The position numbers were made by a program, and so were the translations under genes. A DNA stretch of 64,000 nucleotides from an uncultured Ruminococcus sp. GTDB taxonomy: Bacteria > Bacillota > Clostridia > Oscillospirales > Ruminococcaceae. The stretch lies in assembly GCA_947169885.1 (NCBI GenBank), contig CAMVRM010000013.1, forward strand, positions 1 to 64,000, in the 5' to 3' direction. This document shows positions 24,823 through 37,236 of this stretch, one piece after another. A model generated the notes under the pieces. The model worked only from the letters and a program-made list of their open reading frames with translations. It made no database searches and was not told where the DNA came from. Positions within the stretch are counted from its first letter, which is position 1; every line of letters starts with the position of its first letter.

Positions 24823-24851
24823 ATTATATCACACTTCATCTTCTTTTTCAA
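24823..24851 (-). promoter_or_regulatory. Promoter of the XRE/cobC/cbiB unit
   Basis: Minus-strand TTGAAA (24846-24851), a 17-bp spacer and TATAAT (24823-24828). It overlaps the last codons of the small membrane protein gene. Confidence 0.7.
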
Positions 24852-25041
24852 GCCCCATGAGTTCACGCATCTTCGCTTCCTCGGCGGTCTGCTTGCCCGT
24901 TATGTCCGAATACGCCTCTTTAATAGCGTTCTTCACCGCCCACTTTATGATAAAGTAGGAAAGTATCATCACGATGATGATAGTCCCGTGAGTAACGCCC
25001 AAGTCCTTTGTCAGCCTGCTGAATATTGCAAGTTCAGTCAT
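24829..25041 (-). CDS. Small single-span membrane protein
   Basis: A 70-residue protein beginning MTELAIFSRLTKDLG. The start is set by GGAGGGA 8 nt upstream of the ATG at 25039-25041; longer in-frame starts lie upstream but overlap this site. One hydrophobic segment (THGTIIIVMILSYFIIKWAV) is followed by a charged C-terminal helix ending in an acidic EKEDEV tail. I do not recognise the family. It precedes the membrane-anchored XRE regulator and could be functionally tied to it. Confidence 0.6.
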   Translation of the reverse strand: MTELAIFSRLTKDLGVTHGTIIIVMILSYFIIKWAVKNAIKEAYSDITGKQTAEEAKMRELMGLEKEDEV

Positions 25042-25351
25042 TTTCATTCCCTCCTGTGTTGTTTTTTCGGAAGTTGTTTTCCGTGATCTTATCATAGCAT
25101 TTTTTCGGCTGAAAGTCCACCAAAGCTTCTTTACAAAAGCCGTTTTTTGCGTGTCAAATGTCTTTTACATGGCGTAAATACAGCGTTTTTGCGCATAATT
25201 GCCTTTTGTTAACAATAATTCTTTGCGGCGCTTTCACGCAAATCAATTTTTAAAAATCATATGATAATATTTGTTGATTTTGTAGGGGCGCACCTGCGTG
25301 TGCGCTCGCAGGTAACTTATGAAATAGCGTATAAAAATACGCCATAAACAG

Positions 25352-25470
25352 ATAAGAGATAAGAGATAAAGTTCTGTACAGGCGTATTTTTACACGCCAT
25401 TTTTGCGCTCATACGCCTGACCTATACGCCAAAAACCACGTATTTACGCCACTTATACGCCTATACGCCG
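25352..25470 (+). repeat. Inner inverted repeat, left arm, with ATACGCC iteron-like motifs
   Basis: The 119-bp arm is complementary to 25978-26096 with about four mismatches. It contains at least five (A/T)TACGCC motifs in direct orientation at irregular spacing. Confidence 0.85.
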
Positions 25471-25490
25471 TTTTTGACGGTCAGTGTATA

Positions 25491-25649
25491 TTATGAATGA
25501 TAGCTGAACGTCAGCGATATACCTTTGAAGCCCCTGACGTTGCTTGCGATATTCGTGGAATAATGCACTTTCAGTTTATCTTCATTGCCGTAATGACGGG
25601 CGGCGGCAGGCACGTCCACAAGTTCTTTTACCATATGGAATATCGACAT
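25491..25649 (-). pseudogene. Short ORF resembling the N-terminus of a CHC2-type DNA primase
   Basis: A 52-codon ATG ORF with AGAGGCG just upstream. The first 20 residues (MSIFHMVKELVDVPAAARHY) resemble the opening of DNA-primase-like proteins of plasmids and conjugative elements, in which a short helix ending in AAxxYG precedes the CHC2 zinc finger. The zinc-finger cysteines are absent and the remainder (KVHYSTNIASNVRGFKG) is not recognised. It is probably a decayed remnant carried by the inverted-repeat element; a small functional protein remains possible. The similarity is from memory and needs a profile search. Confidence 0.4.
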
Positions 25650-25881
25650 ATTATCGCCTCTATTTCAAGTAATATCATACTCAAAAAAGTAAAAAGTAAA
25701 TAGGTGATTTTTCATGAATTTTAAATATATGAATATTCATACTTTCAACCGTTTTATATCAAAAATAGTAATTTAGACCTATTTGAAGTTAATATTGATA
25801 TGTTTCGAGCAAAAAAAGCCGCATATATAAGAAAATGCCCCCCGTCAAAACAACGAACAGTTTAAAATATTTATATAAATT

Positions 25882-25972
25882 CTTATCTCTTATTTCTTAT
25901 TTATTATCTCTTATCTCTCATCTCTTATCGCTTATTTATTGTCTCTTATCTGTTATTTATTATCTAATATCT
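25882..25972 (+). repeat. Heptamer tandem array (CTTATTT/CTTATCT)
   Basis: About thirteen 7-bp units in phase, mostly CTTATCT, CTTATTT and ATTATCT variants. Shorter tracts of the same heptamer occur in many other spacers of this window (for example near 15460, 46060, 47050, 51180 and 63030). Confidence 0.85.
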
Positions 25973-25977
25973 GTTTA

Positions 25978-26096
25978 CGGCGTATAGGCGTATAAGTGGC
26001 GTAAATACGTGGTTTTTGGCGTATGGGTCAGGCGTATGGGCGCAAAAACGGCGTATAAAAATACGCCTGTACAGAACTTTATCTCTTATCTCTTAT
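25978..26096 (-). repeat. Inner inverted repeat, right arm
   Basis: Reverse complement of the arm at 25352-25470. Both arms carry the GGCGTAT motif series and extend into GAGATAA heptamer sequence on the outer side. Confidence 0.85.
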
Positions 26097-26192
26097 TTTA
26101 AATAACGCCGAAGGCGCACATTATTTCTTCATTCTTCATTCTTATTTCTTATTTTTAAAAATTGATTTGCGTGACGGCGCTTTTCAAAAAGA

Positions 26193-26221
26193 TTGAAATA
26201 CCCGTCAGAATGTGCTATAAT
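26193..26221 (+). promoter_or_regulatory. Promoter of the HAD-cobJ-cbiJ-cbiET operon
   Basis: TTGAAA (26193-26198), 17 bp and TATAAT (26216-26221), just outside the right terminal repeat of the 941-bp element. The leader is about 25 nt, too short for a cobalamin riboswitch. Confidence 0.8.
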
Positions 26222-36600: not shown

Positions 36601-37236
36601 CTGACCGGGAGCAAGTCCGTCAAGATCGTTCTTTAAGGACTCAGAGAGTTTGTAAAGGTTCTCCTCCTTAGTCTCGTCAAGGCTTGCTTCGTTTTCGAGA
36701 AGCTTTTTGATAGCCTCAGCGCCCATTCCTACCTCAAAATCGCCCTCCTCGTATTTAACGAGCAGTTCCTGATACTGCGATTCGGTGATAAGATCTTTCT
36801 TTATAAGATTTGTTTTGCCTGCGTCGATAACGATGTATTTTGTGAAGTACAGCACTTCTTCCAGTCTTTTCTGGCTGATGTCGAGTATCTGACCGATCCT
36901 CGAAGGTGTGCCCTTGAAGTACCAGATGTGTGAAACAGGTGCAGCAAGTTCGATGTGACCCATTCTTTCACGTCTTACGTCCTTCTTGGCGATAACAACG
37001 CCGCAGCGCTCACACACTCTGCCCTTCTGATACTTCTGCTGCTTGTACTTGCCGCAGTGACAGGTCCAGTCCTTAGTCGGTCCGAAGATGCGTTCGCAGT
37101 AAAGACCGTCCTTTTCAGGCTTCTGTGTACGGTAGTTTATCGTCTCAGGGCGGGTGACCTCGCCGAACGACCATTCTCTGATCTTATCGGGCGAAGCAAG
37201 CGAGATCTTTATTGATTCAAAAACGTTAGATTCCAA
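33601..37236 (-). CDS. rpoC: RNA polymerase beta' subunit
   Basis: A 1,211-residue catalytic subunit. The N-terminal zinc-binding cysteines are in CHCGKYK...CERCGVV, the active-site magnesium loop is [12 protein letters not shown], and the second zinc site includes [30 protein letters not shown] bridge/trigger sequence follows in the middle. Length matches Firmicutes RpoC (about 1,200). The start is TTG at 37234-37236 with AAGGG 8 nt upstream and the expected N-terminus. It follows rpoB by 91 nt in the same operon. Confidence 0.97.

What the first reader, a model, noticed from the sequence alone, without database searches (positions are those of the whole stretch)
25234..26174. 941-bp element with nested inverted repeats, iteron-like motifs and a primase-like fragment
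Perfect 24-bp outer repeats enclose a 119-bp inner inverted repeat (about 97 percent identical arms) packed with ATACGCC/GGCGTAT motifs. The centre encodes a 52-codon peptide whose start resembles CHC2 primases of plasmids. Iteron-like repeats plus a primase remnant recall a replication origin, while the ends recall a transposon. No transposase or Rep gene is present, so this may be a non-autonomous element or a satellite depending on another element. It is the least explained structure in the window.
Basis: partly seen in the sequence, partly recalled or inferred. Interest (0 to 1): 0.78.

Follow-up and report, generated by a model that had tools for sequence, protein, structure and literature searches.

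The report
Jumping element carrying a gutted origin
This 939-base piece of bacterial DNA has the ends and the 9-base target duplication of an ISAs1-type jumping gene, and inside it lies a stripped replication module (two blocks of repeated 7-base motifs around the joined start of a primase gene and end of a helicase gene); it is likely moved by ISAs1 copies in the same genome, and whether the module can still start DNA copying is untested.

Summary
Its 24-bp ends are those of an ISAs1-family insertion sequence: a complete 1178-bp IS with such ends encodes an ISAs1 transposase, and in this genome four pairs of contig ends carry the two IS ends with matching 9-bp duplications. The window element has its own 9-bp duplication, and one related genome has the locus without it. 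The inside is a gutted replication module. The 52-codon ORF joins the first 21 residues of a CHC2 primase to part of the C-terminus of the neighbouring DUF5906 helicase; both are intact in a related mobilizable element, where a similar array sits directly downstream of the helicase. The layout resembles PICI/SaPI and SCCmec origins. In 40 of 40 arrays the variable base of A-N-ACGCC agrees at the three sites compared, and three dialects coexist in this genome, as expected if an initiator once read them. Seven of 12 sibling loci show no ISAs1 end, so ISAs1 may not explain all the spread. The near-identical arms are peculiar to this copy. Origin activity is untested.

The parts
   Evidence: row L032; sequence
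25235..25257 (+). left terminal inverted repeat, CACGCAAATCAATTTTTAAAAAT, ISAs1-family end
25258..25351 (+). subterminal segment with the hairpin TAGGGGCGCACCTGCGTGTGCGC; its outer part is shared with short ISAs1-ended elements of related genomes (query bases 8-83 match G010 and G011, parts of them G009)
25352..25471 (+). left iteron arm (ATACGCC units), on the side of the helicase remnant; in this copy of the primase-side (R) type
25491..25649 (-). 52-codon fusion ORF: residues 1-21 = start of a CHC2 primase, residues 22-46 align with the C-terminus of a DUF5906 helicase; not conserved as an ORF in the seven sibling copies that could be read
25650..25976 (-). AT-rich centre (24% G+C): upstream region of the former primase gene plus a TCTTATC heptad tract (25881-25965)
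25977..26096 (-). right iteron arm, on the side of the primase start (R type)
26151..26173 (-). right terminal inverted repeat, exact complement of the left
26175..26183 (.). right copy of the target-site duplication, CGGCGCTTT; one extra A (26174) lies between it and the repeat
   Evidence: row L032; sequence
26193..26221 (+). promoter-like site TTGAAA-17-TATAAT with TG, outside the element, before the HAD-hydrolase gene; 11 of 12 matches, but the region has no excess of such sites over shuffles (6 found, mean 5.1)

Best explanation
This is a non-autonomous ISAs1-family transposon, likely moved in trans by the transposase of ISAs1 copies in the same genome, and its cargo is the gutted remnant of a primase-helicase replication module whose two iteron arrays are predicted to be a former origin of replication. 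Shown: the ends, the 9-bp target duplication, contig-end pairs that carry both IS ends with matching duplications, one related genome with the locus unoccupied, the primase-helicase fusion, and a homologous array directly downstream of an intact helicase in a related mobilizable element. Inferred: that the transposase acts on these ends in trans; that the arrays were bound by the helicase C-terminal domain, as reported for SCCmec Cch2 and SaPI Rep; and that a deletion of about 1.9 kb (measured against the G001 element) removed most of both genes before the unit was copied around the genome. Untested: any present origin activity.
For: ISAs1 ends: L181:1250-2427 has CACGCAAATCAATTTTCA ends, an exact 9-bp duplication and one 373-aa ORF that matches ISAs1 transposase NF033564 at E 8e-83, plus DDE_Tnp_1 and DDE_Tnp_1_assoc. 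Among 43 elements bounded by such ends in fetched loci, 19 have a 9-bp duplication, 1 has 10, 1 has 8, 2 have 7 and 20 have none (an offset of one base allowed on either side); shuffled flanks give 0.47 with 9. In the own genome five contigs stop inside an IS left end and four inside a right end; of the 20 left-right pairs compared four share the same 9 bases, and the fifth left end has no mate. Locus without the element: G001:C16 keeps the HTH, DUF6019, HAD and TP_methylase-type genes in order, with 464 bp between the aligned ends of DUF6019 and HAD where the window has 1219, and no end or motif in it. Cargo: primase profile E 2.2e-9; helicase C-terminus profile E 5.3e-9, or 4.5e-5 with own-genome rows left out; intact parent at G001:C42; array directly downstream of that helicase. 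Motif dialects concordant in 40 of 40 arrays. Heptamer arrays downstream of the helicase in 5 of 28 non-own helicase loci, against arrays in 1 of 140 shuffled loci. Origin design as published: PMC6092414 and PMC7581432 (passages).
Against: Of 12 own-genome loci with T-dialect arrays, 5 keep a recognisable ISAs1 end (both ends at C13 and C4; one clear end at C40 and C56; a 2-mismatch end at C11) and 7 show none (C1, C2 twice, C6, C12, C25, C54; my reading); in four of the seven (C1, C2 near 146.8 kb, C12, C54) the contig ends in the unit, so only one border is visible. Another route of spread or loss of ends is needed. The transposase gene itself is not in the assembly (0 matches in G000). No intact cognate helicase or CHC2 primase of this kind was found in the genome: the 7 helicase matches cover only residues 388-486 (8 of 12 first-look candidates were scored), and the one CHC2 hit lies in a 614-aa frame that I take to be DnaG. 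20 of 43 end-bounded elements show no duplication. In the window one extra base separates the right duplication from the repeat. No T-dialect array was found next to an intact helicase; only a C-dialect one was (G001). The dialects may reflect few ancestral switches, so 40 of 40 is not 40 independent observations. 23 of 28 non-own helicase loci show no heptamer array by the same rule, though some are cut by contig ends.
Confidence: 0.85

Rival explanations
1. The element is still a working, trans-activated origin: a helicase-primase brought by an incoming mobilizable element of matching dialect binds the arms and starts replication, and the element persists as a parasite of that initiator.
For: Two iteron sets in opposite orientation flank a centre of 31% G+C, 24% in its primase-upstream part, the published PICI origin layout (PMC6092414). 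The motif is kept within each array while its variable base shifts in concert.
Against: No intact initiator found in the genome. The 505-bp spacing is far wider than in the compact array pair of G001 (about 165 bp in all). Sibling copies have lost or shortened arms (C25, C6). Arms within sibling copies are mostly less alike (69-74%) than the between-copy mean of 84%.
Confidence: 0.1
2. The inner arm-centre-arm unit is itself a mobile element with the 120-bp arms as its ends, and the ISAs1 ends are a later, incidental wrapping.
For: 7 of 12 T-dialect loci show no recognisable ISAs1 end. By reading, the units sit in different flanks.
Against: Arms of sibling copies are of two unlike types (R and L, 69-74% identical), so they do not behave as terminal repeats. 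By eye I saw no common boundary or duplication at the borders of the copies without ISAs1 ends; no program was run on this. The arrays lie next to the gene remnants, as in the intact parent.
Confidence: 0.08
3. A repeat-rich regulatory or structural DNA (for example an array for a nucleoid or transcription factor) that only looks like an origin.
For: The window copy lies between genes and a promoter-like site starts 20 bp after its right repeat.
Against: Primase and helicase remnants inside the unit and the array beside an intact helicase tie it to a replication module. The strict array pattern was found in 1 of 297 family genomes, not as a host feature.
Confidence: 0.04
4. A chance cluster or assembly artefact.
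For: Several contigs of this draft end in these repeats.
Against: The window copy lies well inside a 68-kb contig with its own duplication and gene context. 30 array sites against 0 in the reversed-pattern control.
Confidence: 0.01

Closest known systems
ISAs1-family insertion sequences and their non-autonomous derivatives (MITE-like elements)
   Same: Same terminal repeats as a complete ISAs1-family IS, 9-bp duplications, no transposase, several copies; short relatives (about 100-280 bp) with such ends occur in related genomes.
   Different: At 939 bp it is larger than those relatives and carries a foreign replication module instead of being a simple deletion derivative of the IS.
PICI/SaPI replication modules (pri-rep-ori)
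   Same: Primase and initiator-helicase genes followed by an origin of two iteron sets around an AT-rich region (PMC6092414, passages read).
   Different: Genes deleted to a 52-codon scar; the iteron sets lie on both sides of the scar, 505 bp apart; [quoted passage not shown] its primase is of CHC2 type, whereas SaPIbov1 and SaPI5 primases are of the AEP family (PMC7581432).
SCCmec Cch2 helicase and its downstream iterons
   Same: A helicase whose C-terminal domain binds direct repeats just downstream of its own gene (PMC7581432, passages read); here helicase C-terminus remnants also lie beside iterons.
   Different: Cch2 is described there with a Primase_Cterm domain; the relative here matches DUF5906. 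Binding is not shown here.
Phage P4 alpha protein with ori and crr
   Same: Initiator helicase with primase (fused in P4, stated in PMC7145576). That it acts on short repeats, and that crr holds 120-bp repeats, is recalled and not looked up.
   Different: Direct, not inverted, repeats in P4 (recalled); no sequence relationship was tested.

Membership tests
ISAs1-family non-autonomous element | terminal inverted repeats of an ISAs1-family IS | tested here: met
ISAs1-family non-autonomous element | target duplication of the same length as that of the IS | tested here: met
   9 bp at the window, at L181 and at four resident IS contig-end pairs; one extra base at the window's right side
ISAs1-family non-autonomous element | no transposase gene inside | tested here: met
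   the longest ORF between the ends has 68 codons; no transposase match in G000
ISAs1-family non-autonomous element | moved in trans by the transposase | not testable with these tools
   needs a transposition assay
ISAs1-family non-autonomous element | all dispersed copies bounded by the ends | tested here: not met
   5 of 12 T-dialect loci keep an ISAs1 end; the claim is therefore limited to copies that have the ends, the window's included
PICI/SaPI-type origin | two iteron sets flanking an AT-rich region | tested here: met
   definition from PMC6092414
PICI/SaPI-type origin | directly 3' of the initiator gene | tested here: inconclusive
   met in the G001 parent; in the window the gene is reduced to its last ~31 codons
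PICI/SaPI-type origin | cognate initiator present | tested here: not met
   only C-terminal helicase fragments found in G000
PICI/SaPI-type origin | supports replication | not testable with these tools
   needs a plasmid assay
PICI | phage-inducible island with PICI genes | tested here: inconclusive
   13 kb around the G001 parent read: integrase-like gene (by eye), HTH_17 gene, helicase, CHC2 primase, relaxase; no phage gene recognised by eye, but only four of its proteins were run against profiles
CHC2 primase | zinc-ribbon CHC2 domain | tested here: not met
   primase similarity ends at about residue 21; no Pfam hit at E<=10
iteron plasmid replicon | Rep gene beside the iterons | tested here: not met
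   no such ORF in the element; no DNA match in 72,556 plasmid records
structured RNA family | match to a curated Rfam model | tested here: not met
   only tRNA-Pro in the window at gathering scores

The most novel reading that the evidence does not exclude
A transposable origin of replication: a transposon that has turned the iteron origin of a mobilizable element into its own cargo, spreads it round the chromosome in several binding dialects, and is fired or used as an initiator decoy when an element of the matching dialect enters the cell.
Probability: 0.1. Interest if true: 0.82.

Novelty: new variant of a known kind. Interest (0 to 1): 0.5.

Why it matters
Bacterial MITEs are usually short deletion products of an IS (general knowledge). 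Here an ISAs1-ended element carries a reduced replication module, and the genome keeps relatives in three motif dialects (ATACGCC, ACACGCC, AGACGCC), several of them beside remnants of the helicase C-terminus, the part that in SCCmec Cch2 and SaPI Rep binds the iterons. That gives a natural set of array and C-terminus pairs with which to ask how an initiator helicase and its iterons change specificity together. It also suggests a way for origin-like DNA to be scattered through a chromosome by an unrelated transposase.

Tried and rejected
Peptide against Pfam and PHROGs: no hit at E<=10; solved by finding the intact parents and building small profiles. Rfam: only a tRNA. Array pattern in viral contigs (exact): 0. 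Whole element in plasmids and phages, distant mode: no match. An intact parent in the own genome: none found. An intact parent carrying T-dialect arrays: not found among the 30 helicase loci and 3 longer, overlapping stretches scanned. Arms as transposon ends: rejected, siblings have two unlike arm types. A coding role for the 52-codon ORF: rejected; of eight siblings scanned seven give peptides of 23-34 residues that differ after the primase start, and the eighth (C54) gave none, its contig ending there. Papers: ISAs1 with MITE and non-autonomous gave 5 listed papers (passages of one read, which gave no ISAs1 duplication length); iterons with MITE, transposase and origin of replication gave 0; MITE with Ruminococcus gave 1 unrelated. 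In these three searches of the open-access library I saw no description of an ISAs1 element carrying iterons; subscription papers are mostly not in it. The origin of the TCTTATC heptad tracts was not worked out.

Full report
WHAT IS THERE. The window lies in contig C13 of a 3.1-Mb draft genome of 98 contigs. The element sits between a DUF6019 gene (24829-25095, minus) and a HAD-hydrolase gene followed by cobalamin-type genes (TP_methylase, CbiJ). Exact ends CACGCAAATCAATTTTTAAAAAT lie at 25235-25257 and 26151-26173, flanked by CGGCGCTTT on both sides, with one extra A on the right.

MANY COPIES, ONE UNOCCUPIED LOCUS. The whole element as a query gives 33 matches in its own genome, part-matches included. 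Of the other 60 genomes nine match, five of them in the same genus: G009, G010 and G011 mainly through the outer ~80 bp, which carry the end and a GGGGCGC hairpin, the others through short pieces. An array-specific 44-nt pattern at up to 3 mismatches is found in 1 of 297 genomes of the family, this one, at 30 sites. Several contigs of the draft end in these repeats. For the locus itself I looked at 12 loci of relatives that encode a HAD relative. In one of them, G001:C16, the HTH, DUF6019, HAD and TP_methylase-type genes are in the same order, with 464 bp between the aligned ends of DUF6019 and HAD where the window has 1219, and with no ISAs1 end and no A-N-ACGCC motif there. The other 11 did not show the DUF6019 neighbour and say nothing about the site.

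THE ENDS ARE ISAs1 ENDS. The end sequence at up to 3 mismatches occurs in 7 of 61 genomes: 23 ends in the own genome, 18 in G010, 17 in G017 (another genus), 9 in G007, 7 in G011, 4 in G009, and one 3-mismatch site in G038 that may be chance. Some ends in the own genome continue into TTGACA...TATAAT...ATGAAA at contig edges. A scan of genome contigs for the end plus TTGACA gave 33 stretches, all from MAGs titled Ruminococcus, Clostridia or Eubacteriaceae. One of them, L181:1250-2427, is a complete 1178-bp IS with the duplication GATATACAG and one ORF of 373 aa that matches the ISAs1 transposase model (E 8e-83) and DDE_Tnp_1 plus DDE_Tnp_1_assoc. In the own genome five contigs end in an IS left end (C5, C7, C14, C37, C57) and four in a right end (C3, C36, C50, C74), whose translation LIDPHSILRVVGEN resembles the transposase C-terminus LIDSNSILRVIGEN. 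Of all 20 left-right pairs four are identical over 9 bases (C5-C74, C7-C50, C14-C3, C37-C36); C57 has no partner. So at least four IS insertions with 9-bp duplications very likely exist here, although the interior is missing from the assembly (0 transposase matches in G000; 8 of 61 genomes match). Of 43 end-bounded elements in the fetched loci, 19 have 9-bp duplications, 1 has 10, 1 has 8, 2 have 7 and 20 have none, with an offset of one base allowed on either side; flank shuffling gives 0.47 with 9, much of it probably from elements dealt their own flank. The 43 include the IS itself and two entries that share a right flank.

THE CARGO IS A GUTTED REPLICATION MODULE. A second array-bearing unit in the same genome (C4:78060-78690) encodes a peptide whose end resembles the second half of the window's ORF. 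Searched in 100 genomes, it matched 4, the own one included, with long open frames in relatives (490 aa in G001, 464 in G016) and, among the weaker hits, the window itself at E 6.4e-4. In G001:C42 the order is integrase-like gene, HTH_17 gene, helicase (DUF5906, 488 aa), CHC2 primase, a gene on the other strand, and a relaxase (the integrase was recognised by eye only). The primase starts MTIFDDIKELVDVPTAARSYG, the window ORF MSIFHMVKELVDVPAAARHYG; the helicase ends in NEAAYHIKYDLNIPSGSSHVRGFKGIALKFKSSGY, the window ORF has NEDKLKVHYSTNIASNVRGFKGISLTF. Small profiles find the window ORF as the best of the six-frame segments of the window: primase starts (5 sequences) E 2.2e-9 on residues 1-22, next hit E 3.1; helicase ends (5 sequences, two of them from the own genome) E 5.3e-9 on residues 22-46, or E 4.5e-5 with only the three from other genomes, next hits E 0.021 and 0.0044 at 36636-36728. 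The ORF is thus a deletion scar that joins the first codons of one gene to the last of the next; against G001 the lost stretch is about 1.9 kb (my arithmetic). In 198 genomes the G001 helicase matches 26, and the 7 matches in the own genome are C-terminal pieces, residues 388-486. The only CHC2 domain found in the own genome lies in a 614-aa frame, which I take to be DnaG. Of eight siblings scanned, seven encode 23-34-residue remnants that differ after the primase start, so the ORF is not conserved.

THE ARRAYS. Directly downstream of the intact G001 helicase lies an array pair of ACACGCC units, homologous to the remnant at G000:C4:78507-78671. From 21 stretches chosen because they held arrays or helicase pieces, 40 arrays fit one gapless 49-base layout, 38 in the own genome and 2 in G001. 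At the three motif sites compared, the variable base of A-N-ACGCC is the same within each array in 40 of 40: T 18, C 13, G 9. At C20 and C43 some units read AGACACC instead. This concerted change fits sites read by one protein, with the reserve that the arrays are related and the number of independent switches may be as low as two. Of 28 helicase loci outside the own genome, 5 have a heptamer at least five times within 300 bp, each time downstream of the helicase match and each with a different heptamer (ACACGCC, ATGCACC, AGTGACA, TGCAACA, AGAATTA); 1 of 140 shuffled loci has one. The loci reach at most 1500 bp beyond the match, some are cut by contig ends, some come from the same genome, and the helicase matches of L219, L222, L223 and L229 are distant (E 5e-20 to 1e-4). 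In three of the five (L219, L222, L223) the sets lie mostly in opposite orientation around a stretch that looks AT-rich by eye. PICI origins are described as two iteron sets flanking an AT-rich region immediately 3' of the initiator gene (PMC6092414, passages), and SCCmec Cch2 binds repeats downstream of its own gene through its C-terminal domain (PMC7581432, passages). The G001 helicase resembles one solved structure by sequence, 7ola, named DNA primase (E 6.6e-5). In the window the arms have 43-44% G+C, the centre 31% and its primase-upstream part 24%.

TWO ARM TYPES. Arms fall into a primase-side type (R) and a helicase-side type (L); the single arm seen at C54 looks like a hybrid. Six arm pairs of sibling copies were compared (three of them at C40, which has three arrays): five are R with L at 69-74% identity and one is R with R at 91%; the window pair is R with R at 96%; the mean between copies is 84%. 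The near-perfect 119-bp inverted repeat is thus probably a late rearrangement of this copy, perhaps through exchange between arms, and not a transposon end.

WHAT DOES NOT FIT. Seven of 12 T-dialect loci show no ISAs1 end at their visible borders, and in four of the seven only one border is visible (my reading). Most of these borders run out in TTATCTC-type heptad tracts; slippage or recombination there may have removed ends, but this was not tested. No intact initiator of any dialect was found in this genome, so present-day origin function has no support beyond anatomy.

HOW IT LIKELY WORKS. A mobilizable element like that of G001 once entered an ancestor; its primase-helicase operon, with arrays on both sides, lost most of its coding DNA; the scar became bounded by ISAs1-type ends; ISAs1 transposase likely copied or moved it, leaving 9-bp duplications. 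The first and last steps rest on sequence comparison; the order of the middle steps is inferred.

PAPERS. PMC7581432, PMC6092414, PMC7145576 and PMC3281130 were seen as passages found by term; all others as search listings with abstract starts only. The P4 crr layout is recalled.

Noticed in passing
G000:C10:31722-32394 (L082): A second ISAs1-ended element, 673 bp, with AGACGCC arrays in place of ATACGCC and a 10-base duplication AAAATATCGC.
   Followed up: partly
L222:2597-2880, L223:2597-2805, L219:1088-1329: Heptamer sets, mostly inverted, around AT-rich-looking DNA directly downstream of distant helicase relatives: candidate origins of uncharacterised elements.
   Followed up: partly
L005:1350-1650 (G031:C36): Inverted ATACGCC-type arrays in another genus of the family, outside the strict array pattern, with no helicase noticed in the piece read.
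   Followed up: no
G007, G009, G010, G011, G017 (loci): Families of about 100-280-bp elements with ISAs1-type ends, several with a GTAGGGGCGC hairpin; those of G009-G011 share the window element's outer 80 bp.
   Followed up: partly
window 25881-25965, 26079-26096, 26121-26158: TCTTATC/TTATTTC heptad tracts in and around the element, also at the borders of many siblings; their origin and role are unexplained.
   Followed up: no
G021:C215, C264, C365; G140:C17, C26, C28: Helicase matches at several contig edges of one genome, suggesting multicopy relatives of the module.
   Followed up: no
window 36636-36728, minus strand: Weak second hit of the helicase C-terminus profile (E 0.0044-0.021); probably chance.
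   Followed up: no
G000:C4:78060-78690 (L090): C-dialect unit with three arrays and a 66-codon open frame of the helicase C-terminus; the closest remnant seen in this genome to the G001 layout.
   Followed up: partly
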